A stretch of DNA of 64,000 bases. Origin: Macrosoma leucophasiata (lineage: Eukaryota > Arthropoda > Insecta > Lepidoptera > Hedylidae). Location: positions 12,733,001 through 12,797,000 of the forward strand of contig JAWQUS010000016.1 of the NCBI GenBank assembly GCA_036365455.1. The letters run 5' to 3'. Shown one piece after another: positions 34,998-56,386 of this stretch; within the stretch, counting starts at the first letter, position 1, and every line of letters starts with the position of its first letter. A program made the position numbers and the translations under genes. The notes under the pieces are model-generated. The model did not search any database and was not told the DNA's origin. It was given only the letters and a program-made list of their open reading frames with translations.

Positions 34998-37665
34998 ATG
35001 AATATATTTCGTTTATTCGCCGATTTGTCTCACCTATTAGCTATTATAATACTGCTGCTCAAAATCTGGAAAACAAGATCATGTGCAGGTGATGTTCCGC
35101 AGCCGGCATGTTGTCGTTTGTTTAAGTGCCAGGTGGTGTGTTCTTGAATAATAGGATACTTAAATTTGTGTTTCAGGTATATCGGGCAAGTCGCAGATAC
35201 TATTTTCGATTGTTTACACGGCGCGATACCTCGACTTATTGACGACATACGTGTCTGCATATAACACTGTCATGAAAGTGGTGTTCATTGCTGCTTCATA
35301 CGCTACTGTTTACTTGATGTACATAAAATTCAAGGCAACATATGACCACAACCACGACACGTTTAGGATTGAGTTCCTGTTGATACCATCTGTGATCCTA
35401 GCGTTACTGATTAATCGCGAGTTTACTGTGCTCGAGGTTTGTATGCTTCGTTTGATGCTAATCAGTCGTAATCTATAACGACCGTACGACACCTTTAGTT
35501 ATTATTTAAATTTAATTTAATTTTGCTAAACTTGTCATGTATTAGATAATAAGTTAACTTTTTCAACCTTAAACTGTAACATCTTTGTATTATATTTTTC
35601 ATGGTAACTTCACATGGCATAGTGTAATGATATTTTTTTTTTCTGTAACTTCATACCTAACATGTGCGTAATTCCTACTGTAGGAATTTTAGGAAATCCT
35701 CTCTTAAGTGCTCTGTTACTATCCCCAAGGCGCCTACTTGCATAACATCTTTCTGTAACCAATACTTTTGGCTGTACATTGTCTTCAGGATTTATATATA
35801 ATATAAAATATATTTCTTTTCAGGTGTTGTGGACTTTCTCTATTTATCTGGAATCTGTTGCTATTCTACCACAACTGTTTCTGGTTTCAAAGACTGGAGA
35901 AGCTGAGAGTATCACATCACATTATTTGTTTGCATTGGGTTCTTACAGAGGCCTCTACCTTTTGAATTGGGTAAGTTCATTTTCCATAATTCAGATTCTC
36001 ATTTATTTTAAGTTGTTTAATATGAGTGTGTACTCTTATTTCTGTTGCTTATTATTGTATCTCCTTAATAGTTGCTCAAGGTATTTAGTAGTAATAATTA
36101 GTTTTTTAAATTTTAAACACTACCTTATCAGACTAACAGCCAAATACTAAAACGTCACTCAAAGCTTAGTGGGACTTAAAAGTCTTCTGTCTCTATGTTC
36201 AAACGACAAAAAAAGCATATATTTGAGGGTTACTTAACATTAATCCTTCAAGGATCGTACGGCCACCGGCGGCGAGACACAATTGAATTTCAATTGTCAT
36301 ATTTTTCTCGTGTCTGGAGAGATTAAGTGATGCTTATGTATTTGGCAATTAGCATAGTGTAAGTGTAATATTTAATAAAGACATGCATGGCATTTTTTCA
36401 ATTATCTTTTTAATTATGTTAATTTGATGACTTGTAATTTTCTTGTGTTTAATTATACAAGTTTAACTGGATTGATTGCAGATATATCGTTACATAGTAG
36501 AGGACCATTATGAGCTGATTGCCATTGTTGCTGGAGTTGTACAAACTGTTTTGTACTGTGATTTCTTCTATCTCTATATAACTAAAGGTAATCCTTCTTG
36601 TTACATCACTTTTCTGATATGTACTATTTAAAAAGTATTATAACATTTGTTCAAAAAGTCATTCCAAAATGTATGGGAGCTTGGGCCTGCACCTTGAATG
36701 CTATATTATTTGACGACCCGGTTAGTCCAGTGGTGTGAGATGACCGTTTGATTCAAAGGGTCGCGGGTTCGATCCCCGCACCGGGTCAAATATTTGTATG
36801 ACCTACAGGTATTTGTTTCGGGTCTGGATGTTTGTGTATGTGTTGTATGTGTACAACGGCACCCACAACACAGGTTTATACCTACTGTGGGGCTGTGAGT
36901 GTAAGCGTATTTTATTATTTTTTATTTATTTGTATTGTGAGAAGAAGCATAAAAAACTAAAAAAAGAACCTGGGACCTCAGGATCACCAGTTGCTTTACT
37001 ATTAAGCTACTGAAGCCCTACACCAAGTCAAATCTTTCTTTAATTTCTCATCATTTCAATTTATAATGCTGCTTGGGTTTGTGCATTTCAATAATTTCGT
37101 TTTTTTTTGGGTGGATTTTACCTGAAACTGGAACAAGAGTTACTGAATGAACTTGATATTTAACTAAAGATTCTATTCTATTAAATGTCAAAAGCTCCAA
37201 TGATGGAGATCACAGGCTTAGGCATCACCCATAGATCTACTTTGCTCCCAAATGGTAGTGTTCAGCACTGTTGTGTTTAGGTCAGGTAGTAATGTATGGC
37301 CCTATAATTTCTGGCACAGAGGCATAACACCTTAGGAGACCTCAGGCACACTGTGGACACTCCGCCAAAATTCCATACAAACGCGTAATTAGGTTTCTAT
37401 TACACAGACATCAATCAGTGACGTGTATTTACACGGGCACCAACCGTCGCCCAAAAGAGGGGAAGGGATTGAGTGATGCGGGTAAATCAGGCGGGACATC
37501 GAAGTGTCCATTCTATATGTAGTATTATTACATATTTTCCTCCTCAGGAGTGGCAACGCATCTACATTTATGTCTCTGGTCTTTTTAACTGCAGTATTTT
37601 CATATTTAATAATTTGTATTTTTGTTTCAGTTCTGAAAGGGAAGAAGCTACAGTTGCCTGCTTAA
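34998..37665 (+). CDS. KdelR: KDEL receptor (ER lumen protein-retaining receptor)
   Basis: Five exons: 34998-35088, 35177-35436, 35824-35970, 36482-36587 and 37631-37665. They total 639 bases and encode 212 residues, exactly the family length, with all junctions GT-AG and in frame. The protein starts [20 protein letters not shown] and contains the family blocks [16 protein letters not shown], '[20 protein letters not shown]', '[20 protein letters not shown]' and '[17 protein letters not shown]'. It ends [14 protein letters not shown]. Seven hydrophobic segments are evident. The receptor binds K/HDEL-tailed ER chaperones in the cis-Golgi at low pH and returns them in COPI vesicles; the lysine-rich tail fits COPI retrieval. 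The last coding exon is only 35 bases and lies beyond a 1-kb repeat-filled intron. AATAAA is at 37731-37736. Confidence 0.97.
36240..36326 (+). mobile_element. 87-bp TTAA-bounded mini-element, copy 1 (KDEL receptor intron 3)
   Basis: Bounded by TTAA (36240-36243 and 36323-36326). The internal sequence includes 'ccttcaaggatcgtacggcc' and 'caattgaatttcaattg', and it can fold ('agacac' with 'gtgtct', TTAATC with GATTAA). By eye it is identical over all 87 bases, in reverse complement, to 54000-54086. Confidence 0.85.
36711..36945 (+). mobile_element. tRNA-derived SINE (family 2) in KDEL receptor intron 4
   Basis: The head resembles a tRNA: a 7-bp acceptor stem GACCCGG/CCGGGTC, box A-like 'ttagtccagtgg', and a perfect T arm 'gcgggttcgatccccgc'. 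The D and anticodon arms do not fold properly, so it is not a functional tRNA gene. The body ('gtttcgggtctggatgtttg' ... 'cacccacaacacaggttta' ... 'gtgagtgtaagcgtat') recurs as tail fragments at 60757-60815 and 62930-62990. Confidence 0.8.
37197..37520 (+). repeat. Repeat A copy A5 joined to a second dispersed repeat
   Basis: 37197-37345 is repeat A (starts 'agctccaatgatggagatca', contains 'tggcacagaggcataacacc'). 37350-37520 matches parts of 3520-3830 ('attccatacaaacgcg', 'gacatcgaagtgtccattct'). The A copy appears split: its 'aggagtggcaacgcatct' part resumes at about 37545. Confidence 0.6.
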
Positions 37666-41555: not shown

Positions 41556-44500
41556 CTATTTTCCGCACAATAAAGCTGCATAATTTTCGAAATCCGCAAT
41601 GTGAATTTGCTCCTGAAAAGAAACAAAAATGTAAGTTAGGTAGTTTCTATTCATAGTAAGCATGAACTGGGTCAATCAACCAACTTTGCAATTCAAAACA
41701 TTGGCTGGACTATTAATTTTGTAACCATTCAAGATATCATCTATGTGTATAAAAACCAATTGCTGTTCGCTGTAATCCTGACCCTGTTGACATCTGCGGG
41801 CACATTACCAAACTTCGAGGTACCTACTGGGAAATTTCCAGAAAATGGAAAAATCCCAATAGAACCAGAGATAAAGGTTATTTTATCCACCATTATCTCT
41901 GATAACTGATGCAAATAAATTATTGAATATTGAATAACCCCAACCCGGGAATCGAACCCAGGACCTCAGCGTAGTAGTAGTGGCCTGCTACCACTAGGCT
42001 GTTATTTTTTTTTTAAATACTTATTAAATTTATAATTTTGTAGTTTTTGGTTGCATAATCAAAATTATGGGGATATGTATTTTTTATGTACTGCAAACAA
42101 AAGTCTGCGGTGTGTTTGAGCTTCGATAAATACATTTTGTTTGTTAATAATAATCTCTATCCAATTAGGTACTTAGTGGTAACAAGACCAGTGAGATAAG
42201 GAAGCCTAAATTGTTTAATGTTATCTTAAGTACCTACTCAAAGTCAATTGCATTAACACATCCGTTCGTAGCCATTGTATGTATAATTATGTATTTGTGA
42301 TTAATCATATAATTGCTTACTTTTAGGGCTCTGGAAATATTATTGTAATTAATATTTATATACCTACTGTTATTATCTGAAAGCTTAGCTTAACTTTTGA
42401 CAGCTGGCTGCGCTTCATCACGATTTCCCATTAGTTTCACGCATTTATTTCCCCCAAAGGCGCCAGTAGTGGTATAGGTGTATACACACTGTCACACACC
42501 CAATTATTAATAGCAAATAATGTTTTTTTTTTCTAATATCCTTAATATTGTCGTATACATATGTATGTAACTGCCTCAGTAGCGTAGTGGTAGCAGGCCA
42601 CTACTATTGCGCTAGAGGTCCTGGGTTCGATTCCCGGGTCGGGGACTATCAGAAATAACGGTTTAAAATCCTTTATCTCTGCTTCTATTGGGATTTTTCA
42701 ATTTTCTGGAAGTTTCCCAGTACCCCGGAGTTTGGTAATGTGCCCGGAGATGGCAACAGGTACGCCACCTGTTGCCATCTCCGGGCATGAATGAATGAAA
42801 TTGAATGCATGCATTTACCTCTGCCTACCCCTTCGGGTATTACAGGCGTGAAGTTACGTTACGTTACATATGTATATATCTCGTTATATTCGCATCACCG
42901 AGGCTCTTTTTACAGCACTACACATGCCTATTTTACCGCGACGTAATACAAACAAAGTTAACATGACAGTTAAATTTTTTTAACTACCAATGGTTGACTG
43001 GCAGAGAGCGCTTAAGTCCGCCATTTGTACCGATGTTTTATTGATACAATAAAGAATAAATAAATAAATAAATAAATTTTAAGAATTAGTTTAAACTGAA
43101 ATTTGACATTGTCTAATACATACATCTCGTTTAACAAGTAGTGAACAGCAAAAATGATTAAACTTGGAGTGTAAGCTAAAGTTCACTTTTAAACCTCGTT
43201 AAAAACCACAGAAAACATTAGTGAAATCCAGCCTTATGGTAACTAAGAGGCGGGTGAGACTCATTGTCAGTGCGATGCATGGGCCAAGGGCCACATAGCT
43301 AAAGCGAGAGTTTACAGAGCAGTGGTCTATGATCATTATTGTAGTTTTAAACAATGGTTTTAGGTAACAAACCTGTAGCATAGTACTGCTATTCAATAAA
43401 TTAAATATTCCATTGGCAAGCGTATTCTCACTTAATATTGCTGTGTATGTTACACCCATGTGAAGGTTTTCTTTGATCTGTCAATTAAACAAAATAAATA
43501 TGCATAGGTATTACTAACATACTGAAATCTTTTGCAATTTGATTCCATGTATGTACTATAAATGAAGTTTCTGGTTATTAAAAAACATTGCAAATTAGAC
43601 TTTACAGACATTCATTCAAATAAGCCATGTGACCAACTGGACATTTCTTCAGTAGTACATATATGAATAATTTATATACAATGTTAAAGTAAAGCTGGCA
43701 ACTTGTATGAATAATAATAACTTATTTTTCTTTGTTTTTAGGATTCCGTAGTAAACAAGGAACCCTTACAGTTTCGCCACGTTAGTCTGTCTGTCTGTCT
43801 CTCCGTCCGCGGTTTAGCGCAAATACTATTGATACTAGAGACTTGAAATTTGGCACAAGTATGTAAGAGGAGGGGTTGCTTTTACGAGGCAGGAGGCCTC
43901 TTCAGTTCGGATATCTAGGTAGTGTTGTGGGCGTGTCTTTCCATAAGCCGATATGTTACTCGTGTTTGTGGGCATCTGTAGGTGGGTACTCGAGCGGATG
44001 ATGAAATAAAGCACAGGTTGGCAGAAGAAAGTCGTATATTGCCAAAGATCCGCCCATTCGATTACTTCCGGCAGGGAAGAACGGGCAAGAAACCCTTCGG
44101 ACCGGGAAACCATATTTATCAGGATACGATACTACTACTATCATTAGTCTTCTGCCCATTTGGTTCAGAACTACCCGCGTTATATCACTTTAATATCACT
44201 GACGTTCACTGTTCTAACTGGCAGCATAACTGCCCTACAATAATTCGATTCAACTGTGTGACTGTGACTGAATGATCGTTACTCTATGACTGACCGTCAT
44301 GAGCAGGTTACTATCATCTCATACCCCCTTGGGGTATGGGGAACCAAGGTCGGGGCGATTGCCCCCTGCGTGGGGTTGTCTACGCCAATCGTTACTACGA
44401 TTGGGTCCTTGGGGTTGCCAGTCATGGCTTTAGTTGTCCGGGTGTGTGACCCACTTGTGTGGGTCAAGGTCAGTCCAGGGTGCGGGTTTAACACAGCGCG

Positions 44501-47500
44501 CGGTCTACCATCAGGTGTCCTGCAGCAGCTGTGTTTCCTCTTGAGTCAATCCGTGTATTTCCAATTTTCAATGGCCGCACGTCACTCCTCCGCCTGGTTG
44601 ACGAGGAGTTCGCGCGGTAGTTTTTTGCCCTCCGGTGGGCGAGCGTGCAGGGGTGCGAGGTTACGGATGTGCGTAAGATCTGACACATCGGCCCGCGCGA
44701 ACATCGATGTGGTTAGGCGTCGTATAAACTGTTCAATAGTTTCTATGTCCAGGTCCCTCTGGATCGTGGAATTCCTCACGTAGCGGGGGGCGTTCACGAT
44801 TTTTCGGATGGTTGCCATCTGGGTTGCTTCGATGTTTTTTCTGGTTGTCTCTGAGGTCAACGCATACCATGCCGGCGCCGCATACGTGAGGCGGGGCCTG
44901 ATGTAGCATTTGTAGACCCCTATCTTCACCCTCAGAGGGAGCCTGGAGGTCAGTATTGGGCGGAGGAGGAATCTACTGGTCTTCACCTGTCTTAGGATAT
45001 TCTTGACGTGCGGGCACATTGTGAGTCTCGAGTCAAGTGTGACTCCGAGGTATTTCGCTCGGGTCCCCCACTTGATCTCTTCTCCGTGTAGTTTGAGTGG
45101 TGGCGTTTTGTGGGTATTTCCTGTTGCGACGGTCTGCGTTTTCCCGACGTTCACTGAGAGGCGCCACTTGGAGAGCCATTCTGGCAGGAGGTCCAGGGAA
45201 TTTTGGATTTTTTGGCCCGCTCGCTTCATGTTCATGGATGTGGCTGTATATGCGGCGTCGTCCGCATACAAATACAGCTCACATCCGTCGGCCACTGGGA
45301 TGTCATTTGTGAACGTCGAGTAGCAGGCCGGTGAGAGGCAGCTTCCCTGTGGCACGCCGGCCATCACTGGGCGTGCGCTGGATGTTGCTCTCTCCACCAC
45401 CACTCGTATTTTCCGATCGGCTAAAAAGGATCGTACCACACGAACGATTCGACGGGGCGCATCTGTGAGGGATAGCTTGTACAGCAGACCATCGTGCCAT
45501 ACTCTGTCGAATGCCTTTTCCATGTCTAACAGCACGACGGCAGCTTTCTCTTTTTTATTCTTCGCGACTGTCAGGTTGTGTATAATCCGCGTGAGTTGCT
45601 GCGTCGTGCTGTGTTCCGCTCGGAAGCCGAACTGCTCCGCTCTCACTGGCAAGCACGGTCGCAGGTGTCTCAGCAGGAGCCCTTCGAACACCTTAGAGAT
45701 TGTGGGCAGCAGGGTTATGGGCCGGTAGGATGCAGCTTTCCTTTTGTCCTTCCCCGGTTTTGGTAGCATGATGACGTTTCCCGTCTTCCAGATGGTTGGG
45801 AAATGCCCCGTGCGCAGTATGCCGTTATATAATCTGGCTATTGCCGCGGTGGTCTTGAGTGGCAGGCGTCTCAGTGTGGCATTTGTTATGCCATCTGCGC
45901 CCGGGGCCTTCCTGGGTTTGGTCTGCTTGATCGCTCTAGCTACCATTGCCGGGGAGAAAACGATGGGGTCCTCTTGTGCGTCCGTATTCGCGTCGAAGTA
46001 ATCTCTTAGGTGTTGCTCGACTGCCGAGACGTGCTCTGCCTCAGAGGTGGCGTTCGGTTGGAACTGTTTCTCCAGATGGTCTGCGTACAGCTCGGCGCGG
46101 TCCTCCGCTCGGTATCTGAGCGTCCCGTCCTCGTGAAGCAGAGGTCTAACTGGGGCTGGGGTGTTCGTGTAGCGTCTGCACAATTTGTGCAGCGCGTTTG
46201 TGTCGTCTGAGGCCTCGTCTATAGTGTGCTCCCAGTCCTCCGTACTGTGAGCCTCTACTTCCGCCTTGACCCGTTCCGTGATCCTATTCAGACTGTTCTT
46301 AAGGACTGGGCATCTGGTTGACTGCCACTGCCTTCGCAGTGCCCTTTTTTCCTCCAGCATGCGTCGAATTTTCGGAGGGAGAGGGGGGATGGATCCTGTT
46401 TCCGGTTTCTCCGTTGTGGCATAGTCTTTGGCTTCCTGGATGGCAGTGGTCAGTCCAGCCGCAAGTCTGTCCACCTCCTCTGGCGTTTCAACAGGCCAAG
46501 ACGTCGTTGTGGTCGTCAGCCGATCGGCGAAGAGTGTCCAATCCGTGGTATGACGTGGCGCTCTCTGCGGTGTGCGTACCGGTATATCCGCCAGGACTGC
46601 TAGTATGATTTGGTGATCCGATCCGAAGCTCTCCGCTAAAACTTCCAGCGAGGGCGGGCATGGAAGTCGGCGGTGGACCACCAAATCGATCACATCCGGT
46701 ATTCCATGTGACCCGTCTGGGTAATGCGTGGGCGCGTCTGGGCCCGTGACCGTGTAGTTGAATTTGTCTGCGTCCGTGAAGAGTCGTGCACCGCTGGGAT
46801 TCATACTGTTGGAGTTCCACGCCGGGTGTTTCGAGTTCCAATCGCCGGCGACTAGTACTGCTTTGTCCTCTCCCAAATCCAGTAGTTTGTGGGTGTCCGG
46901 TATAAACTGTAATAGTCCTGGTGGTTTGTAGGTAGCAAATATCTGAAGTGGTCGACCGGCGATTTCCACCTCTACTCCTAGGGCTTTCAGCTCATCCAGT
47001 GCTGGTGTTGATATTGGCTGGTGGACGACTCCTCTCCTGACTAACACGACCAGGCCCCTGCAGGCCCTAATGCGTCCGATTTCGTCCTGGCGGTAGGTAT
47101 GGTAACCTGAGATTCGTAATTTGTCCGCTGGCGTGAGTAGAGTCTCGCAGATTAGCGCCACGTCAATGTCTTGGTCTCGTAGGACGATCCGGAGGAGCGC
47201 GGCCTTGCCCCTCAGGCCGCGGGCGTTCCAGTATATAAGCCGGAAGGGCTTACCCGTGCTGGGTGAGGAGGTCCGCCATCCCCCTCAGCACCACGGGGAC
47301 GGGGTTTTCTCCCGCCCGCAGCGCGTTGAGCACCGCTTGCAGGACCTCCACTGCAGCGGTGAGCACGGCTCTCGTGCCTTCATTCTGGGCCCCAAAGTTT
47401 GCCATCTCTCCCTGGCCCTCGTGATGCGCGGTGTGCGCAGACACAGGTGTGGCGGATGGGGCTCCTGTAATTCTAGTTGGCGGCCGTGCTAACACGGGTC

Positions 47501-50500
47501 CGGGCTTCGGTGGTGGTATTGCCACTGTTGGCGCCACCATTGGTATGATGTTCGCTGCAGGTACTGGGTCCTGGGCCGCGGGCGGTGGGCGTTGGCTCTT
47601 CTTGCCTTTTGGCCTCGATTTCCTTTTCCCCTTCCGCGTGGTTCCTCCGGCTCCGCGCTCATGGGGGTTATTGGCTGCAGCCATCAGGGAAGATGATGCC
47701 TGTTCTGGCTGCGGCCGTTCAGGACCGGCTGGGGCATCGGCGGTGGTGGGTGCGGTGGTTGAAGATATGGCTGCGGTTGAGCGGGCCACGGTGCCAGCTT
47801 TCTTGTTTCTTGCCTCGGCTTTAAATACCGGGCAAGAGGTGTTGTTTGCCGGGTGCGGTCCCCCGCAGTTGGCACAGGTGGCGGGTTCTTCTTTGGGCCG
47901 CTCGCATTCGTAGGCGTGGTGCGGCCCTCCGCACCGGACGCAGGCTAGGGGTCTGTGGCAGCCGTGCGAGGAGTGACGGAATTGCTGGCACCGGTGACAT
48001 TGTGCCGGTCCTTTTTTCCCCCTCCAGGCCTCAATCTTCACTCCGGGCATGAAGAGGATCTCCGTTACATTGTAGATGCCCGGGGTGAGGCCTGGCGTGG
48101 CCTTCAGCAGGGCATGGAAGATGCATCCGGGCCGGCCTTGCCTGGCCCGGACTGGGCGTACGAATTCTGCTTCGTAGCCCTTAGCGCGGAGGTCGTCCTT
48201 GATTTCTTCGGCCGGTGTGTCCGCGGGCAGTCCCCTGATGGCTACCTTAAGTAGTCTGTCTGCCGGGAGGCTGTAGGAGAACCACGATATTCCCGTGTCC
48301 CTCTCCATCTCTCCTAGGTACCGCTGGATGGTACGGTATTCCTCCTCGGAGCCTGGGGTGAACCTTATCCCCTTCCCGAAGGGCCTCGCATTGGGAGGGT
48401 GGCCGAGCCGTTCTCTTAAGGCTTTCAAGTGTTGGGTCCAATCCGGCATATGCTCTACCACCAGCGGGGGATATCGTGGCTTTCTGGTCGTGTCCTTCGC
48501 GCCGACTCCCTGTGCGGCGGGTGTTACATCCTCCGAGGTTCCCGGTACAGGGGCTGCGGCGGTTTCGGCGGTCCTTATTTGTGGTCCGGCTTTCGCGGCG
48601 TCAGCAAACGAGACGGCGGGCGAGATGGCAATGGCGAGCGCGGGGGGCGCGGCGCGGTGCGGGGGAGGCGGCGGCGGTGCGGCGAACGCGGGGGTCCGTA
48701 GGGTCGGTGCGGCTGGCTGCGGTGAGGGCGGGGGGGTATCCTTCCCTCTCAGGCGGGGGTCTCGGGGGGGGAGGGGGGCGATGCATGACCGCTTGGGTGT
48801 CTCCTCTATGCATCCCTCTCCCTCGGGGCTGCGGGGGCGCTTCTCGCCCGGTAGGTATTGGGCCAGTTCGCCCAGTCCCTCAGCTTCCAGTTCCTGCAGC
48901 GACGGCAGCTCCTTTCCTTCCAGTGCCGCCTCCTTGTCCCTCAGGTACATCGCCATCCGTTGCATGACGCCAGGCGAAAACATTCCCGAGTTTTTCATGG
49001 CCGCCAGTGCCACAAAATCCAAGTTCAACTTGGATCTCGGCGTCATGGCGGCTTCCGACAAATCCGGCATGTCCGGCAAGTGCGTCTTGCGGGCCGACGA
49101 TGACCGCATGTAGGGCGGTAATGCAAGGTTTTCGGCCGGGGGGGCGGGGGGAGCGCGCGGGGGTGCGGTGCGGCCGGTCGGGGGGCCGGCGGCTTGGGTC
49201 TTCACAGCGGTTGGTATAATCGGCGGGGAGGGGGGGGGCCTCTCGGTGAGTGAGTGCGATCGAGCTAGTTGCTGTCTCACTCGGCTACTCCCCTCTCTCC
49301 CGGAATTCCCGGTAGGTGTCGGCTTCTGGAGCGGGGGGGGCCTCTCGGTGAGAGGGCGAGACTGCATCTTGCTGTCTCCCTCTCGGCGCTCCCCCTCACT
49401 CCCGGATCTCCTGGTTTCGGTCTCCTTGGTCCCGATTGGCTTTCCCCTTGGCGTGCGCTCCTGCCCGGAATCTTGACGCTCCCTGCTTGGACCGGCTTGG
49501 GAGGTGGCTGCATCCTTGGGTGATGGTGTTGGTGTTCCCCTCTTCATGGTTGAATCTGGCACCGTATACTAATTATACGGGCCAGATTCCTTAAGCGTCC
49601 AGAATGATTCCCGAGGGCGGTGTATTCGTGATGAGAAATACGGATCGTGTTGACGGATGGTGTGTGATCTTGGTTACAGCAGATGGATTTGGTAACAACA
49701 GATATTGACGTACTGTCGTAGGATGTGGTTACACAGACACGCCACCATTCAGTCCGCACGATCGCCGAACACTGAGTTGTATACGCGAGTGAAGGCACTT
49801 TTATACACTGGTATGAGCGAGATGGATATACGAGTGTGAAAGAGAGCGAAAGCGTACGCACGGGCGATCCTCTGACCGTCATGAACCATTTGCTAGCCTT
49901 TATAAACCCGATATCGGCAAGTCACTATCCCCTCTAAGGTAACAAATCCAAGTACCTAAGCCGACCGTGGCGCCACCTAGAATTCTCTATTAAACAATCT
50001 ACCCCAGTCATAATTAGGTTACGTCTCCGACAAACTAGATGGCGCTTGTAGTCACATTTAGGTTCCACTCCGATAAGTATACACCTTAATCAAGCCGATA
50101 AAATGGTAGAATAAAAACATGAAAAATAAAATTATTATTTAGGGTACCTCCCCTATATGTAACGCATAGTTTTTTTTTTTTTTTCATTTTCTATATAGTG
50201 TAGTATATCATTGGATAGGTCTTTTAAAAATGTTAGAGGTGTGCTAACACCATTTTTGGATTTAGTTAACTGTTCGTCACCTATTAAGTTTTAAAGTGCC
50301 AATTTTCGTTAGAGTCAAGTGTTTCCCCCATCTACCAACAAAACGGTTGTTGTTAGAAATTTAAACGTTACGGTAATAGTAGCTACATATAACGAAATTA
50401 AAAGGAAAACTATCACACCTAAGTTAGCTTTATAAATTTGAGTAATAGTCGACCAAATGTAATACTCGAAATTTTTGAACAACTCCATAGAAAATATTTA

Positions 50501-53500
50501 TAATTTTTTTTCATTACATTAATTAAACCTAAAAACTACGGAACCCTACACTGCGCGTGGCCGGACACGCGCTTGACCGGTTTTTTCTTATTTTTATTAT
50601 AAAAGTGTAAATTTACCTGTGGTTCAATGGGCAATAGAAAACTAGGCAGCCATGTTGATATTTTTTTCAATTCAAGTCTATAAAATAGAAGTGAAGCTAA
50701 ATCTTTCAGTATACTTTCCTTTTCTGGATCTGAAAATAAAATGGAATAACTTTATCAATTTTAACCACAGAATAATATAAAAGATGTTCTTACACTCCTA
50801 CTAAAAATATAACCCCCTTATTCATAAGAGTACATAGACAAGACTTTGTTTAAACCTGCCAAGTGTGTGTCGGGCCACGTGCAATGTAGGGTTCCGATTA
50901 TTACATTTTATAAGCCCAATGATGGACAAGCGCCGACCTTCCCCAAAGACGCCCAAAAAGAAGTGTTGCACAACACTATGAGAGAATATGCCATAATGAC
51001 CACAATTGTGAGGCGGATTTACAATTGCAGTGGCGGTGGATAAAAATCGCGCGGGACACTGTTGCCCATCTCAAGTTATTACATTTACTACCGCCCTGTT
51101 CTGATTGTTTGCTCCCCATTATTCGGTTGACTCACTGAACTAAAGGAAGACCCGTCCACTATAGGGCGATGAGGTCGTCATGTCACAATGCCTTCAAGAT
51201 TCAGAATATTGTCTACTTATTTATTTATATTAGCTTCATGGCGGCATCACCGGACATAACATATGTTGACCTCTGTGCTACCACTATTTTTTTCAGCTGT
51301 CCAAATATCACCGTTTAGGGGCGTCAAAGGGGAATACACGACTCTAAGACACTGTTAAAAGCTAATAATTCATGAACAAATCTCTAAGTCGAAAATGATG
51401 TTCCTAAACTTTTGAAAGATCTATCCAATGACACCCTACATATGGGGTGCTTGAAAAAAAAACATCCCAACTCCATTTTTTTATAACATAATGTATTTTT
51501 ACCACTTGCTGGATAGTTGGTAGTACCATGACAAATTATAGCTTTCTAGTACAAAATGTTTCATACTGGTGGACGGACATGTCGAAACTATAAGACTTGA
51601 GCCTACAGAACTTTAACCATAATGTTCTTTGTCTTTTTACCGAAGTCAATTGAGTAAAATAGAAAAACACTAGAGTTTGCTTATATACATCTATGAATAA
51701 AGGGGTCAAAGGCGTACCTTCATATTTCAATGCAAATGAGAATTTATATGGTGCCATTTGATTGTGTAAACGAAGATAGCCCTCTTTGGTGCTGTTACAT
51801 AAACCATCCAATAAAAGAGTGAATAATGCCTTCTCTATAGGCATTGAACAACTTAGACTTGATGTATCTGAATTCTAAAATGAAATCATAAAACAGCACA
51901 TATTAATGAAAGTCACATTTAAAGACATACCTCCTTATTCATAAACATATTTTAGCTAAAGTGTTGCTAATGTCCCCTTTGTCTCTTTCTATCGTACACA
52001 TTTGACAATGAAACTGACAAAAACAAAGCATTCTATAGCTAAAACATATCTAATGTACGTTTATGAATAAGGGGGTTAATACATAACAATGGTTTAATTT
52101 GCATAATCTTGGAAAAACTAATATTTCTTACAATTTCATGATTATTATTGATTGTTATTGTCTCTACAACTTGAGGACCGCAGTCAAAATTGGCCAATAT
52201 ATTAACTTCAGCACCATCATCTCCATATTTAATATCATTTACAGCAAATAAACTTGGTGTTGTGGTTACCTGTAATATTTAAAACGAATTGTTTCTTTAA
52301 TTCAAATAATCTGTAATGGTAAAATAGTTAACATTGAAATCAATTCATGAGGAAAAATATTAATCATATAAGAATCACAATATTTTGGTAAGTGAATTTA
52401 GAAATAAAGAAAAAAAAATGCGGTAAAGTAGCAGGACTGGTTATCCTGCCCTAAGTTATTTTCAGAACTTTTTAAATTTAGTTATTTATAAAAGGAAAAC
52501 CAAGAGTTTGTACAATCATAATAACATAAAATCAATTTAAAAACAGAGAGCTAGGCTAATAAGACGCGAAAACCCAATTGGATAAAGATTGGCAGAAGGA
52601 GTGGGATTGGTCGAAACTAGTAAAAGGAAAGCATTATGCTGATATTCAGCCCCTTATAAAAACCATGGTCTGCTAATACAGACCGTGGTTTTTTAAATTC
52701 TGTTCACAAGATAAGTGATCTTGCTCGGTGCTATGCCGTTTTGGTCATGTGTGTACTCCGTTTTTTTTTTTGCAGAAAATTAGGATTAGGGTCAGTTCTC
52801 TATATGAATGCGGTTTAGATGAAGGTTCCGTAGATCATATATTTTTTAATTGTTCTTTCATTTCAACAAACACCCTAATTTTAAATCTAAACTTATAAAA
52901 TGTGACGCACCTAATTTTTAGTATACTGAATATGTCTTAAATATGTAGCAGTTGAAAAATGTCTTATCTAATTTTATCTACCTATTATCATTTTTTTTTG
53001 TTTCAATATTTTGTAACATATAGCATGTTGTGGTTACCTATAAGTGCAGGAACAGTTAAATAAGTTAATATTTATGCAGTGTATAATTTTTAGATGCACC
53101 CACTGTAACTTGTGTTGGTAATCCGTAAATAAATAAATAAATAAAAATCTTTCCTACCATCTTATATATTATTTCAAATAATATAAAATCACCATCTATA
53201 TTAATTGTAATAATCATATTAGGTTTGATCTAATTTAACTAATATTCTATTTATTTATTATAATTATTATGAAGAACATTCAACTAATTCTTATATTATA
53301 TAGATCAATAATTAAACAATGTGTGTGACATCATGATGACTAGTTGTTACCAGTACTAACAGACGTTTGAGTATTCGGCCATATATGAACCATTTTTAAT
53401 AATAAGAAAACACTTACAGAACTCCACCAATATTTCCTATACCTTTGCCATTGTAAGAAATACTGCATCACATCTTGTTGTGGGATACTAAGACTTAACA

Positions 53501-53807
53501 TTAATTTCGAGTTCATGGGTTTAATTTCATCCTTATCATTTTCTACAACTATTTCACTAATTGGAGCATAGTATGGTGTAATGCAGCCCTGGAATATGTT
53601 TTTCCCATAAGTAGATTCATTCTCACTAAGATATATAGTAAACTGTTGACTTGTTTTTGCATATGAAAATTGTAACCAACTGTTGCACAAGTTCTGCAAT
53701 AACATTTTACTTGGCTTTTCCAAGATGTAAGTACTGTTGTGGTTACTTGAACAACTCAGTTTGAAAAACTCTTTGAGATTAAGAACTCTTCTAAGATTAG
53801 TTTTCAT
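41556..53807 (-). CDS. POLG2: POLG2, accessory subunit of mitochondrial DNA polymerase gamma
   Basis: Six exons on the minus strand: 53418-53807, 52132-52269, 51718-51874, 50617-50729, 43373-43477 and 41556-41612. They total 960 bases and encode 319 residues, all in frame with GT-AG introns. The C-terminal half is the anticodon-binding-like domain of the family: 'LHNQMAPYKFSFALKYE' (family: hxAPYKxSFA), 'DLASLLFYRLELKKISTW', 'GVTYTAILSENTLANGI' (family: PYTxVLxExTLxxG) and 'MLQEQIHIADF' (family: xxKEQVHIxDL). The 'QRYRKYWWSS' block fits the insect N-terminal part. The RSRDTT-type sequence before the last exon reads NLLNSSTMLQ here, a divergence. The protein is the processivity factor of mtDNA polymerase. 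Its ATG overlaps the end of GatC by 11 nt, implying a dicistronic mRNA. Intron 4 (7.1 kb) contains an intact Jockey element in sense orientation. Confidence 0.9.
41770..42002 (-). mobile_element. SINE family 1 copy (POLG2 intron 5)
   Basis: Minus strand: tRNA-like head near 42002-41940 ('ggtcctgggttcgattcccg'), then the body down to 'aatgtgcccgcagatgtc' near 41790. It lacks the 3' end. Confidence 0.8.
42568..42868 (+). mobile_element. SINE family 1, full-length copy with internal perfect hairpin (POLG2 intron 5)
   Basis: The tRNA-like head 'ctgcctcagtagcgtagtgg' (42571 onward) with box B 'gggttcgattcc' is followed by the body and the 3' end 'ctctgcctaccccttcgggt' ... 'gcgtgaagttacgt'. At about 42739-42786 the sequence 'gcccggagatggcaacaggt' is followed, after 'acgcc', by its exact reverse complement. 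The copy at 23417-23727 lacks this extra arm. Confidence 0.88.
42988..43077 (+). mobile_element. Very short 3' fragment of the CR1/L2-like LINE
   Basis: 'ccaatggttgactggcagag' ... 'ccgatgttttattgatacaa' and then a (aaat)n run ending near 43077. This matches the 3' end of the element at 25345-27167. It is a typical dead-on-arrival LINE insertion of about 90 bp. Confidence 0.85.
43738..43880 (+). repeat. Repeat family F fragment
   Basis: Starts 'ttaggattccgtagtaaa' with 'gtctgtctgtctgtctctcc', as in the copy at 24010. It lies in POLG2 intron 4. Confidence 0.6.
44582..47284 (-). CDS. Jockey-type LINE ORF2: APE endonuclease and reverse transcriptase
   Basis: The open frame runs from 47284 to the TGA at 44582-44584, about 900 codons. 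The endonuclease comes first: 'LIYWNARGLRGKAALL' (just before 47161), 'VALICETLL' with the catalytic Glu, 'LVAGDWNSKHPAWNS', and 'SFGSDHQIILAVL' with the SDH motif. Reverse transcriptase follows: 'KTGNVIMLPKPGKDKRKAAS', 'EQFGFRAEHSTTQQL', 'VLLDMEKAFDRVWHDGL', 'GVPQGSCLSPACYSTFTND' and the catalytic 'YLYADDAAY'. The residues around 'LPLKTTAAIARLYNGILRTG' are typical of the Jockey clade. The first ATG (47161) lies inside the endonuclease, after its first conserved block. No ATG precedes that block in this frame, so translation probably starts by coupling to, or frameshifting from, ORF1. Confidence 0.93.
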   Translation of the reverse strand, partial: GGWRTSSPSTGKPFRLIYWNARGLRGKAALLRIVLRDQDIDVALICETLLTPADKLRISGYHTYRQDEIGRIRACRGLVVLVRRGVVHQPISTPALDELKALGVEVEIAGRPLQIFATYKPPGLLQFIPDTHKLLDLGEDKAVLVAGDWNSKHPAWNSNSMNPSGARLFTDADKFNYTVTGPDAPTHYPDGSHGIPDVIDLVVHRRLPCPPSLEVLAESFGSDHQIILAVLADIPVRTPQRAPRHTTDWTLFADRLTTTTTSWPVETPEEVDRLAAGLTTAIQEAKDYATTEKPETGSIPPLPPKIRRMLEEKRALRRQWQSTRCPVLKNSLNRITERVKAEVEAHSTEDWEHTIDEASDDTNALHKLCRRYTNTPAPVRPLLHEDGTLRYRAEDRAELYADHLEKQFQPNATSEAEHVSAVEQHLRDYFDANTDAQEDPIVFSPAMVARAIKQTKPRKAPGADGITNATLRRLPLKTTAAIARLYNGILRTGHFPTIWKTGNVIMLPKPGKDKRKAASYRPITLLPTISKVFEGLLLRHLRPCLPVRAEQFGFRAEHSTTQQLTRIIHNLTVAKNKKEKAAVVLLDMEKAFDRVWHDGLLYKLSLTDAPRRIVRVVRSFLADRKIRVVVERATSSARPVMAGVPQGSCLSPACYSTFTNDIPVADGCELYLYADDAAYTATSMNMKRAGQKIQNSLDLLPEWLSKWRLSVNVGKTQTVATGNTHKTPPLKLHGEEIKWGTRAKYLGVTLDSRLTMCPHVKNILRQVKTSRFLLRPILTSRLPLRVKIGVYKCYIRPRLTYAAPAWYALTSETTRKNIEATQMATIRKIVNAPRYVRNSTIQRDLDIETIEQFIRRLTTSMFARADVSDLTHIRNLAPLHARPPEGKKLPRELLVNQAEE
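47250..49562 (-). CDS. Jockey-type LINE ORF1 (gag-like, PRE_C2HC and zinc knuckles)
   Basis: 770 residues from MPDSTMKRGTPTPSPKDAAT to the TAA at 47250-47252. The first ~330 residues are disordered, rich in Pro, Arg and Ser. 'RPRSPEGEGCIEETPKRSC' is near residue 245. The region around residues 380-520 contains 'LKVAIRGLPADTPAEEIKDD', matching the PRE_C2HC domain of Jockey and related ORF1 proteins. Zinc knuckles follow: QCHRCQQFRHSSHGC, ACVRCGGPHHAYEC and TCANCGGPHPANNTSC. The first knuckle has Arg in place of the usual Gly before His. The tail (about 560-690) is low-complexity Ala/Pro/Lys. ORF1 proteins bind and chaperone the element's RNA. The end overlaps the ORF2 frame by 35 nt. Confidence 0.92.
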   Translation of the reverse strand: MPDSTMKRGTPTPSPKDAATSQAGPSRERQDSGQERTPRGKPIGTKETETRRSGSEGERREGDSKMQSRPLTERPPPLQKPTPTGNSGREGSSRVRQQLARSHSLTERPPPSPPIIPTAVKTQAAGPPTGRTAPPRAPPAPPAENLALPPYMRSSSARKTHLPDMPDLSEAAMTPRSKLNLDFVALAAMKNSGMFSPGVMQRMAMYLRDKEAALEGKELPSLQELEAEGLGELAQYLPGEKRPRSPEGEGCIEETPKRSCIAPLPPRDPRLRGKDTPPPSPQPAAPTLRTPAFAAPPPPPPHRAAPPALAIAISPAVSFADAAKAGPQIRTAETAAAPVPGTSEDVTPAAQGVGAKDTTRKPRYPPLVVEHMPDWTQHLKALRERLGHPPNARPFGKGIRFTPGSEEEYRTIQRYLGEMERDTGISWFSYSLPADRLLKVAIRGLPADTPAEEIKDDLRAKGYEAEFVRPVRARQGRPGCIFHALLKATPGLTPGIYNVTEILFMPGVKIEAWRGKKGPAQCHRCQQFRHSSHGCHRPLACVRCGGPHHAYECERPKEEPATCANCGGPHPANNTSCPVFKAEARNKKAGTVARSTAAISSTTAPTTADAPAGPERPQPEQASSSLMAAANNPHERGAGGTTRKGKRKSRPKGKKSQRPPPAAQDPVPAANIIPMVAPTVAIPPPKPGPVLARPPTRITGAPSATPVSAHTAHHEGQGEMANFGAQNEGTRAVLTAAVEVLQAVLNALRAGENPVPVVLRGMADLLTQHG
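49885..50616. repeat. POLG2 intron 4 remainder with repeat F fragment
   Basis: Right of the Jockey insertion: unique AT-rich DNA, then about 50340-50590 matches repeat F ('ggaaccctacactgcgcgtg', 'cgcgcttgaccggttttttc'), which ends only a few tens of bases before the exon 4 donor. Confidence 0.55.
51930..52076. mobile_element. MITE family H, complete copy (POLG2 intron 2)
   Basis: 147 bp flanked by TA on both sides. Terminal inverted repeats: 'CCTCCTTATTCATAAACATA' and, on the other strand, 'ACCCCCTTATTCATAAACGT'. The inner sequence also mirrors ('ttttagctaaa' against 'tagctaaaaca'). It fills more than half of a 257-bp intron. A related cluster is at 39141-39434, and half copies lie near 50812 and 51690. 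Confidence 0.82.
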
Positions 53808-54566
53808 TTTTATTAATGTTCACTTTCTTTGATGCAGTTTCATAATCATCAGTTATTTCATGTAGGGGTATGTTGCCAGGTGGAGCTATGAAATAGTCAT
53901 CTTCTTTTAGAGCTGCATTTTTTAATATATCTGCTTGACAGTTCCCTTGAGTCACCTTATCTGGACGAAGGCTTAAATTTCTGTAATGTAAAAAGGTAAT
54001 TAATCTCTCCAGACACGAGAAAAATATGACAATTGAAATTCAATTGTGTCTCGCCGCCGGTGGCCGTACGATCCTTGAAGGATTAAGAAGCTTGTAATGT
54101 AATCTTCTTCATTTATTACAAGCATTGGATCACAAGATCCACCCACCCATACTGCCATTACTATCTGGTACTTTATGTAATAAGGGGATGGCAAGTTATA
54201 AGCATATAAGATTAGATTTTGCATGCGATTCGAGCATAGTCAGAAAAATGACGTGAAACATACTTACTCGTTTTCTAAAACAGAGTACAAAGGCAATACG
54301 TTATCCGTGTTTATGTGAAGTATTCTGTCAGCAAATGCAATAGAATCTTCTAACACTTGAACACTATCTGCAGTGTCGCATTTCACTAAAGTAAGTCTTT
54401 CTAAAAGATTTAAGGTGTGAGCATCAACTTTCGTTGTTTTTATTTTCTTTTTTTCTAATGTGACAACAGGGGCTGTCGGCACTTTAGAATTAAATCGCTT
54501 CCAAGCAATGGGAATTACTTTACTCTTCCTTGCAAAATTAAGCATGTATTTCATATTCGAATTCAC
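53797..54566 (-). CDS. gatC: GatC, subunit C of mitochondrial glutamyl-tRNA(Gln) amidotransferase
   Basis: Exon 1 is 54268-54566 and exon 2 is 53797-53980. They total 483 bases and encode 160 residues, joined in frame (AACGA|gtaagt; ttacag|AAATTT). The N-terminus (MNSNMKYMLNFARKSKVIPI) is basic and presequence-like; the second Met (codon 5) is also possible. The GatC fold is clear: VDAHTLNLLERLTLV, 'LEDSIAFADRILHINTDNV', LPLYSVLENENLSLRPDKV, 'QGNCQADILKNAALKEDDYF' and IAPPGNIPL. GatCAB converts Glu-tRNA(Gln) to Gln-tRNA(Gln) in mitochondria; GatC links subunits A and B. The final 11 bases, ATGAAAACTAA, contain the POLG2 start codon in another frame, so both proteins must come from one transcript. 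The intron contains an 87-bp TTAA mini-element. Confidence 0.95.
54000..54086 (-). mobile_element. 87-bp TTAA-bounded mini-element, copy 2 (GatC intron)
   Basis: Bounded by TTAA (54000-54003 and 54083-54086). By eye its reverse complement is identical base for base to 36240-36326. It occupies almost a third of the 287-bp GatC intron. Confidence 0.85.
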
Positions 54567-56179
54567 GTTGAGTGTAAACGTTGTTTAGTTCAAACTAATA
54601 ATACAAGTAAAATTGTTTGTTTAAGAATATGTTGACAGTAGTAGAATAGTAAACTACTATTTAAATAAGCAAACAAAATAAAATGAAACGAGAAAATATA
54701 ACCTGAAACTAAAACAAACTGACATTTGTATTTTTTTTTAATGGCAATTAAGGATGGCAATGGCATGGTAACATGGCAACCACCAGTAGGGAGGTAAGGA
54801 GTAGGTAGGATCTGCCAGCATCACTTATGATTATAGATTTGGTTATTGCATAGATTTATTATCTACTTCGATGAATGGTCTAAAAAATTAAGAAAATGAA
54901 GCATAGATTTAAAGTAATATAATAAATCTATGAAATGAAGACTGTGAATATAAATGACGATTGGCTGCAAAAAACTTCAATCAAGACCGTAAAACAAAAA
55001 AAAGACATCTTGGGATTTAATTTATTTTTGACATATTAAACATATAGGTCTTGGTTATTGGTCTGTGGGTACAACACTGGTTTTGAATAAAGTTTTGCGT
55101 TCACGGGTGTAGGAAAGTAATTATGAAGTGAAAAGTGATTTTTCATGTTGTCTCCAACACATCGTAAAATCTCCTTGTAAAGTCCCCATCACTTTACTGG
55201 AGCTATCTCATCATATTTCACATAGAAGCATCCAATCATCGTCATCTTCCTTAGGAAAAAAAAAATCGACATGTGGCACTCGGGGACTGCCGCGATAAAG
55301 CTATTGCATAGCATTTTGTATCAACTTATGCAATTATAATTATTTATTTATTTTATTTATGCAGTATTTCTTTTTTTCTTTGATATTAATTCAAGTTACA
55401 TTTTTTGAGCGTGGTGACCGATAAAAATACATTTTTTTTTCTTATATTAAATAAAAAAGTTAATATTGTTTGAAATATTTTTATTATTTTACAATACATA
55501 TAAACAGCTGCTTATGTATTCGTCCGATTTCGGAGCAGCTCGTCTCGATTCGTGCGAGCTTCGTACAATACGTCTAGTTGCACGCACACAAACACCGTGT
55601 CGAAGACTGCCGAAAAGAAACGACGTTAGACAATGCACGGCCTTCAAGCCACACCTCCGTGCCCATCGGAGTGGGTGGAGCGTGAGGTTTTTTCGTTACG
55701 GAATTTCTGGATTCGGTCCCCGCGCTCAAGGCCCTCGATAGAAGCTATGCAATAGCTTAAAAATTACTGAATATTGGCTGTTAAGGACTTGAATCCGTGG
55801 CCGTAAAACAATTAAGAAAAATAAATTTTGTTTTCCGTTTTCTAATTCTGACATAAATTGAGGTTAGGAAATTGCAAATGTTTATCTATTTCTGTTTTTT
55901 ATTTGTACATTGAGTAAGTGTATTTATTATCAGTTGTTTTTCAAATACTGTGCAGTTTATATTATATTATTAATAATCACTCGCATTTATTGATTTATTT
56001 AACCTATAAATTGCTTCACTTAATGCTACACTGAATAAGTTGTAATGAATTGAACTACACTATTTATTTATATAATTTGATTTCAAGAGAATGATTAATT
56101 AACACGTATTTCGCATAATTTGATAGCAGTTTTAAATGTAAGTATGTATTTTTCTATTTTTTTGGTTATTTGCAGAAGA
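54567..56179. other. Intergenic region between divergent GatC/POLG2 and the COX14-like gene
   Basis: It holds both promoters and a repeat D copy split by another element (55165-55810). A possible non-coding first exon of the COX14-like gene could end near 55914 ('cattga|gtaagtg'). This is a guess from the donor sequence only. Confidence 0.45.
55165..55810. repeat. Repeat D copy interrupted by a second repeat with short inverted ends
   Basis: Repeat D blocks at 55165-55251 and 55762-55810 match 10290-10475. Between them, about 55252-55760, lies a different element containing 'cgacatgtggcactcgggga', with 'aagctattgcatagc' near 55299 and its reverse complement 'gctatgcaatagctt' near 55744. The open frame at 55466-55741 inside it has no recognisable domain. 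Confidence 0.65.
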
Positions 56180-56386
56180 ATGAGGAAACAGGCGCGAAAT
56201 ATCTTGTACGATAAGTTACATAAAGGATTTGTTGTGTGTTGTATTGGTATGACACTTTATGGATCAATTATTTTAGGGGATCATGTGTATAAATATTTCA
56301 AATATGTGCGACCCCGAATTGAAGAGTCAAAGGCGGCAGCAGAACAGGAACTTCTGTCTGAAGGATCATCAGAAAAAATGGTTTAG
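56180..56386 (+). CDS. COX14-like small single-pass (mitochondrial) membrane protein
   Basis: 68 residues: MRKQARNILYDKLHKGFVVC, then one membrane span (about residues 15-37, ending GMTLYGSIILGDHVY), then 'KYFKYVRPRIEESKAAAEQE' and a short polar tail. The acceptor 'ttatttgcag' at 56175 lies five bases upstream of this ATG, so the upstream open codons are probably intronic and the 5' UTR is spliced. The T-x-Y-G...VYxYF pattern and topology resemble COX14 (human 57 residues), a cytochrome c oxidase assembly factor. Similarity is short, so another small inner-membrane protein is possible. An AATAAA occurs at about 56477. Confidence 0.6.
   Translation: MRKQARNILYDKLHKGFVVCCIGMTLYGSIILGDHVYKYFKYVRPRIEESKAAAEQELLSEGSSEKMV

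What the first reader, a model, noticed from the sequence alone, without database searches (positions are those of the whole stretch)
53797..53807. Overlapping GatC stop and POLG2 start: a dicistronic mitochondrial mRNA
The 11 bases ATGAAAACTAA on the minus strand are at once the end of GatC (..GAA AAC TAA) and the start of POLG2 (ATG AAA ACT ..). Both ORFs have strong family matches, and there is no room for a promoter or splice acceptor between them. A single mRNA must encode both, with POLG2 made by reinitiation, leaky scanning or coupling. From memory, Drosophila GatC and DNApol-gamma35 are also annotated as sharing a dicistronic locus; if so, the arrangement has been kept across insect orders. 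It would couple mtDNA replication to mitochondrial Gln-tRNA supply at the translational level.
Basis: partly seen in the sequence, partly recalled or inferred. Interest (0 to 1): 0.78.

Follow-up and report, generated by a model that had tools for sequence, protein, structure and literature searches.

The report
Overlapping GatC–POLG2 two-gene message
In this butterfly or moth genome two nuclear genes for mitochondrial proteins overlap by 11 bases and are very probably read from one shared messenger RNA, a pairing already known in fruit flies, and the stop-over-start junction looks conserved in many moths and butterflies, which suggests that making the second protein depends on finishing the first.

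Summary
On the minus strand ATGAAAACTAA (53807-53797) is both the end of a two-exon GatC (156 aa) and the start of a six-exon POLG2 (319 aa, 53807-41556). The locus is lepidopteran and nuclear. A shared mRNA is very likely but not a "must": no RNA could be read, and a promoter inside GatC is not excluded. Support: linked or fused gene models in many Lepidoptera, and one unnamed pair whose spliced GatC and POLG2 share a contig length of exactly 1500 bases. Drosophila GatC/DNApol-gamma35 is published as one dicistronic mRNA, so the arrangement is not new. Not met in my searches: conservation of the junction itself. All 15 protein pairs tested are codon-compatible with an overlap of 11 nt or more (1.25-1.75% of shuffled controls). 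GatC tails vary but mostly end [KQE]-N-E-N-stop, which would write POLG2's AUG, A at -3 and the stop; POLG2 residue 4, where the GatC stop is written, is oddly acidic. Out-of-frame AUGs in GatC are not depleted, against plain leaky scanning. Best mechanism: termination at the GatC stop, then reinitiation 8 nt upstream. That step is inferred.

The parts
53797..53807 (-). 11-nt overlap ATGAAAACTAA: GatC ..GAA AAC TAA and POLG2 ATG AAA ACT AA(T)
   Evidence: sequence
54268..54554 (-). GatC exon 1 (coding part)
   Evidence: donor GTAAGT at 54267
53981..54267 (-). GatC intron, 287 nt, GT..AG
53797..53980 (-). GatC exon 2 coding part, stop TAA at 53799-53797; the same exon continues into POLG2
53808..53811 (-). 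AAAA before the POLG2 AUG (A at -3), written by the GatC codons for K and N
   Evidence: the residue at this place is K, Q or E in 26 of 26 canonical tails
53418..53807 (-). POLG2 coding exon 1 (start codon 53807-53805)
52132..52269 (-). POLG2 coding exon 2
   Evidence: PDB Pol gamma B match
51718..51874 (-). POLG2 coding exon 3
50617..50729 (-). POLG2 coding exon 4
43373..43477 (-). POLG2 coding exon 5 (beyond a LINE in the intron)
41556..41612 (-). POLG2 coding exon 6 and stop TAG

Best explanation
A nuclear dicistronic gene. [quoted passage not shown] the two reading frames together cover 1420 nt. Ribosomes translate GatC and stop at the stop codon that lies inside the POLG2 start region; a minority of post-termination 40S subunits slip back 8 nt to the AUG, which sits in an A-rich context, and make POLG2. 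POLG2 output would then be a fixed small fraction of GatC output. Shown: both intact genes, the overlap, protein ends in relatives that fit the same overlap, and no depletion of out-of-frame AUGs. Inferred: the shared mRNA in this species (strongly) and termination-reinitiation (moderately).
For: Frames and identity. Linkage: in 16 of 17 species with a contig length listed for both proteins the lengths are equal (Chilo is the exception); Dendrolimus has locus tags 007175/007176; 11 species have gene models that join GatC to POLG2 exons. Transcript: a 151-aa GatC (P0062) and a 331-aa POLG2 (P0012), both without introns, each sit on a single contig whose length is 1500 bases, and their ends are overlap-compatible. 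Junction: 15 of 15 pairs compatible with an overlap of at least 11 nt; 7 of 7 further cross-species pairs, a weaker test. 25 of 36 lepidopteran or presumed lepidopteran GatC tails have the canonical end, against 2 of 74 other tails. In the 26 canonical tails (window included) the last three residues have entropy 0.24-0.70 bits, positions -6 to -14 have 2.5-3.3 bits. POLG2 residue 4, where the GatC stop is written, is acidic in 30 of 42 selected proteins; residues 5-21 have 0-5 of 42 each. Against leaky scanning: 7 out-of-frame AUGs, 5.8 +/- 1.4 expected. Precedent: Drosophila dicistronic mRNA; coupled reinitiation in the silkworm retrotransposon SART1 and in five human transcripts without a TURBS, as told by the review PMC5972666 (passages).
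Against: No RNA, ribosome profile or DNA of relatives was available; that the two 1500-base contigs are one is inferred from length. Two of the nine unnamed GatC clusters have longest contigs of 905 and 1067 bases, too short for both genes. No TURBS core UGGGA in the mRNA stretch scanned. No unusual RNA fold up- or downstream of the junction (z 0.28, 0.25, -0.56), although SART1 needs a downstream structure. Three tails (P0085, P0086, P0088) have no +1 AUG-capable dipeptide in their last 12 residues. Internal Met is absent from 33 of 36 of these GatC proteins, which leaky scanning would also predict. The review calls reinitiation after long ORFs presumably very rare. The pairs are related species, not independent tests, and the overlap could be an evolutionary trap.
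Confidence: 0.55

Rival explanations
1. Dicistronic mRNA, but POLG2 is reached by leaky scanning past the GatC AUG, helped by reinitiation after the tiny out-of-frame ORFs.
For: All seven out-of-frame AUG ORFs are only 2-9 codons, from which scanning could resume. 33 of 36 lepidopteran or presumed lepidopteran GatC proteins have no internal Met between residue 20 and GNIP (no control lineage). Leaky scanning is supported for Drosophila sloth1/sloth2, whose upstream start has a weak context (PMC9681215, passages).
Against: The GatC AUG has A at -3. Out-of-frame AUGs are not depleted: 7 against 5.8 +/- 1.4, P(<=7)=0.89; that the longest such ORF is only 9 codons has P=0.17. It gives no reason for the stop to stay on the POLG2 AUG.
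Confidence: 0.17
2. POLG2 also has, or mainly uses, its own transcript from a promoter inside GatC (intron or exon 2) or from an alternative first exon joined to the acceptor at 53981.
For: Acceptor and intron exist. [quoted passage not shown] A review speaks of a DRE-bearing promoter of fly PolG2 and, by text search, does not mention GatC (PMC7714529, passages).
Against: Exon 2 carries five AUGs upstream of the POLG2 AUG, the last 36 nt away, so such a transcript must still pass them unless it starts within 36 nt. FlyAtlas 2 gives the two fly genes one identical transcript. Does not explain why the stop stays put.
Confidence: 0.18
3. Internal ribosome entry at the end of GatC.
For: FlyBase authors think IRES use may be common among fly dicistronic genes (PMC4528330, passages).
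Against: No structure beyond shuffles; does not predict a fixed stop position.
Confidence: 0.05
4. The conserved overlap is a frozen accident: the pair became overlapped once, and constraint on the POLG2 presequence and start context keeps it so, with no functional coupling.
For: The stop position does move: fits of 17 nt in Pieris (two species) and 29 nt in Choristoneura.
Against: GatC tails vary in sequence and length (14-24 residues after GNIPL), so a stop could arise upstream, yet in all 15 tested pairs the ends are compatible with a GatC frame that runs through the POLG2 AUG.
Confidence: 0.2

Closest known systems
Drosophila melanogaster GatC / DNApol-gamma35 (pol gamma-beta) dicistronic locus
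   Same: The same two genes on one mRNA (PMC5753349, passage; PMC6926476, passages).
   Different: Whether the fly frames overlap could not be tested; Drosophila GatC proteins listed end at or soon after GNIPLEQ, without the lepidopteran NEN tail.
Termination-reinitiation at overlapping stop/start sites (caliciviruses, influenza B M1/BM2, silkworm SART1 retrotransposon)
   Same: Stop and start overlap or lie a few nt apart (PMC3035654, start of abstract in the listing; PMC5972666, passages).
   Different: No UGGGA core found; the AUG lies 8 nt before the stop codon, not in the UAAUG form; cellular gene; mechanism untested.
Human overlapping-ORF transcripts with coupled reinitiation (Gould et al. 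2014, through review PMC5972666)
   Same: Cellular, no TURBS (passage).
   Different: Here the downstream ORF is a conserved enzyme subunit and the junction looks conserved within an insect order.
Drosophila sloth1/sloth2 bicistronic gene
   Same: Bicistronic nuclear gene for proteins that act in mitochondria (PMC9681215, passages).
   Different: 5-nt spacer and leaky scanning from a weak start; here an overlap and A at -3 of the upstream start.

Membership tests
GatC (PF02686) | Family profile above curated cut-off | tested here: met
   38.3 bits against 23; PDB GatC chain 2df4_C E=5.6e-6. The bacterial NCBIfam equivalog TIGR00135 scores 39.6, below its cut-off of 47.1.
POLG2 | Similarity to Pol gamma B, including the C-terminal domain | tested here: met
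   E=4e-20 to 5c53_B, best stretch residues 209-312; lepidopteran POLG2. No Pfam match for the first-exon ORF and no NCBIfam match.
Dicistronic gene | Two complete, non-homologous ORFs on one processed mRNA | tested here: inconclusive
   ORFs met; common mRNA only inferred from the shared 1500-base contig length and joined gene models
Dicistronic gene | No obligate monocistronic transcript for the downstream ORF | not testable with these tools
   no RNA data
Termination-reinitiation system | Start codon overlapping or within a few nt of the upstream stop | tested here: met
   8 nt from AUG to stop codon; relatives' protein ends fit
Termination-reinitiation system | TURBS motif 1 (UGGGA) shortly upstream | tested here: not met
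   absent from the mRNA stretch scanned; the five human cases lack it too (review)
Termination-reinitiation system | Downstream translation depends on termination at the upstream stop | not testable with these tools
   needs reporters
Leaky-scanning bicistronic gene | Weak upstream start and depletion of AUGs in the upstream ORF | tested here: not met
   A at -3; 7 out-of-frame AUGs against 5.8 expected. In-frame Met is scarce, though, in 33 of 36 proteins.

The most novel reading that the evidence does not exclude
Across Lepidoptera the last codons of GatC are a translation-coupling signal for another protein: the GatC tail K/Q/E-N-E-N-stop is kept because it writes POLG2's start context, AUG and the stop on top of it, so the mtDNA polymerase accessory subunit is made only as a set fraction of terminating GatC ribosomes. 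It would be a TURBS-free, cellular termination-reinitiation device conserved within an insect order.
Probability: 0.4. Interest if true: 0.7.

Novelty: new member of a known kind. Interest (0 to 1): 0.52.

Why it matters
The review I saw calls reinitiation after long ORFs presumably very rare, and conserved cellular examples are few. This junction is easy to test: two nuclear genes for mitochondrial proteins, one overlap, natural variants across Lepidoptera (fits of 11, 17 and 29 nt; TAA, TGA or TAG stops by codon fit). If coupled, it fixes the ratio of a mitochondrial translation factor to an mtDNA replication factor. It also warns annotators: 11 gene models here join the two proteins, and several POLG2 models lack their N-terminus.

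Tried and rejected
Leaky scanning as sole mechanism: set aside as best reading after the synonymous-codon permutation. TURBS: not found. A special RNA fold at the junction: none. Low internal Met in GatC: 33 of 36 lepidopteran or presumed lepidopteran proteins and 65 of 75 others have none in the stretch counted; without a control lineage it decides nothing. IMG/VR search for DNA of relatives with the first POLG2 exon: nothing, so overlaps in relatives rest on protein ends, not on DNA. A regular-expression hunt for the last POLG2 exons failed; tblastn with homologues found them. Papers: in the listings, which show only the top part of what matched, I saw no paper on the overlap or on this pair in Lepidoptera; a search for both gene names (DNApol-gamma35, GatC) found one paper, FlyAtlas 2. 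The library is open-licence PMC only.

Rows dropped or assumed before counts; the 36 'lepidopteran' tails include 9 unnamed 'lgn' clusters that I take as lepidopteran from similarity; the 74 others are P0112-P0187 without P0115 and without one lacking GNIP, mostly Diptera by name where named; the 7 cross-species pairs include two that share one GatC and two across genera; 42 of 56 POLG2 entries kept; models joined to GatC and those not matching a pattern (P0012 among them) left out, three starts re-set by hand (P0008, P0026, P0036); 5 of the 42 (P0029, P0030, P0042, P0050, P0052) are truncated models that should not count; residue 22 is also often acidic (12 of 42); 597 hits, 120 listed, 7996 candidates scored.

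Full report
What is there. On the minus strand the bases ATGAAAACTAA at 53807-53797 are at once the last codons of GatC (GAA AAC TAA, preceded by AAA AAT) and the first of POLG2 (ATG AAA ACT AAT). GatC is two exons, 54554-54268 and 53980-53797, with a GT-AG intron of 287 nt; the splice gives 156 residues without a stop. It matches Pfam GatC at 38.3 bits against a cut-off of 23 and a GatC chain of the PDB. POLG2 is six coding exons (53807-53418, 52269-52132, 51874-51718, 50729-50617, 43477-43373, 41612-41556), 319 residues. It matches Pol gamma B with E=4e-20 and, exon by exon, the lepidopteran POLG2 proteins tried. The two coding regions together are 1420 nt. A LINE sits in the intron between POLG2 exons 4 and 5.

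Which organism. All hits that name an organism in the first two protein searches are, to my knowledge, Lepidoptera (55 hits, 49 hits). The top-scoring are Maniola for POLG2 (53%) and Bicyclus for GatC (63%). The species itself was not identified.

Is the pair kept together? Chilo differs, perhaps because its two proteins come from different assemblies. Dendrolimus kikuchii has consecutive locus tags 007175 and 007176. Eleven species carry gene models in which GatC is joined to POLG2 exons (P0027, P0028, P0044, P0046, P0049, P0053, P0105, P0106, P0107, P0110, P0115). Such joins can arise when a gene finder meets two frames on one apparent transcription unit; I do not take them as real proteins.

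Is there one mRNA? No RNA data could be read. The best indirect evidence is that P0062, a 151-residue GatC, and P0012, a 331-residue POLG2, both without introns, each come from one contig of 1500 bases of the source 'lgn'. Their joint coding length would be 1441 nt with an 11-nt overlap. Of nine 'lgn'-only GatC clusters with a tail, all taken as lepidopteran, six have longest contigs of 1461-1667 bases, the size of a two-gene message; the others have 905, 1067 and 2327, and the first two are too short for both genes. That 'lgn' means assembled public reads is my inference. In Drosophila the shared transcript is in print: FlyAtlas 2 calls the mRNA of DNApol-gamma35 and GatC dicistronic with two translation starts (PMC5753349, passage), and PMC6926476 calls the genes co-transcribed (passages). 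FlyBase counted 159 dicistronic pairs in release 6.04, some overlapping (PMC4528330, passages).

Is the overlap itself kept? DNA of relatives was out of reach, but the protein ends tell. For each pair I asked whether one nucleotide sequence can encode the GatC tail with its stop and, in another frame, the POLG2 start. All 15 pairs (window, 12 named species, 2 unnamed pairs) allow an overlap of 11 nt or more, the best fit always in the +1 frame; with shuffled GatC tails, random GatC stretches or shuffled POLG2 starts 1.75%, 1.25% and 1.75% of 400 do. Fourteen give 11 nt. Choristoneura gives 29 nt: its GatC tail NVNRITEDI-stop is POLG2's MLTELQRIFS read in the other frame. Plodia's odd tail NDK-stop fits its odd start MTNN. 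Seven of seven cross-species pairs also fit, Pieris with 17 nt; these are weaker tests. Of 36 lepidopteran or presumed lepidopteran tails, 25 have the canonical form and 20 end NEN; of 74 other tails 2 and 0 do. Of the remaining 11, eight have an AUG-capable dipeptide 5-9 residues before the stop; P0085, P0086 and P0088 have none in their last 12 residues.

The two frames shape each other. In the 26 canonical tails the last three residues are nearly fixed (entropy 0.70, 0.24, 0.70 bits) while positions -6 to -14 are free (2.5-3.3 bits). The residue before them is K, Q or E in 26 of 26; by the genetic code these put A at position -3 of the POLG2 AUG. In POLG2, residue 4 is acidic in 30 of 42 selected proteins, while residues 5-21 have 0 to 5 acidic residues each; residue 22 has 12 (5 of the 42 are truncated models). 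Residue 4 supplies the GA or AA of the GatC stop in the canonical fit. An acidic residue early in a mitochondrial presequence is unusual (established knowledge), so the overlap is its likely cause.

Mechanism. The GatC AUG has A at -3 and the POLG2 AUG sits in AAAAATGA. Between them lie one in-frame and seven out-of-frame AUGs, each of the latter opening 2-9 codons. Permuting synonymous codons gives 5.8 +/- 1.4 out-of-frame AUGs, so they are not depleted; a message relying on leaky scanning should avoid them. On the other side, 33 of 36 GatC proteins lack internal Met in the stretch counted, which leaky scanning would also favour; no control lineage was at hand. What is kept is the stop on the start, as in termination-reinitiation. 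No TURBS core and no special fold was found, but five human transcripts with coupled reinitiation also lack a TURBS, and the silkworm SART1 retrotransposon is reported to use such coupling, with a downstream structure that I do not see here (review PMC5972666, passages; the original paper was not held). I therefore favour reinitiation by back-stepping 8 nt, with leaky scanning, a separate POLG2 transcript and a frozen accident as live rivals.

'Must' is too strong, 'mitochondrial mRNA' should read nuclear mRNA, and coupling of replication to Gln-tRNA supply is untested. A search for both fly gene names found one paper, FlyAtlas 2, and I saw no paper on this pair in Lepidoptera among those listed.

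Noticed in passing
P0053, P0105, P0106, P0107, P0110: Five species from four butterfly families (families recalled) have gene models with the same junction GNIPLHE|(I/V)TTTP, joining GatC exon 2 to POLG2 exon 2 in frame. Many GatC tails read HEV, whose GAR-GTN codons could be a splice donor; the window reads HEI (GAA ATA) and lacks it. Either a gene-finder habit or a real joined isoform.
   Followed up: partly
window 44582-49568, minus strand: Non-LTR retrotransposon in the POLG2 intron, same strand: ORF1 frame 772 codons, ORF2 frame 900 codons with endonuclease and reverse transcriptase. The open ORF2 frame overlaps the end of ORF1 by about 35 nt and shows no ATG in that overlap.
   Followed up: partly
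window 56144-56386, plus strand: 80-residue ORF matching COX14, cytochrome oxidase assembly (53.9 bits): a third gene for a mitochondrial protein, divergent from GatC, about 1.6 kb from the GatC start.
   Followed up: partly
window 53814-53809, minus strand: AATAAA just upstream of the POLG2 AUG; could in principle give a GatC-only mRNA ending right after its stop, but the N-K that writes it is not general in the other GatC tails.
   Followed up: no
window 36715-36788, plus strand: ARAGORN reports a tRNA-like gene without a clear anticodon.
   Followed up: no
P0056-P0088, P0108, P0109, P0111 and P0112-P0187: GatC proteins with no Met between residue 20 and GNIP/GNIV: 33 of 36 lepidopteran or presumed lepidopteran, 65 of 75 others. 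No control lineage was available.
   Followed up: partly
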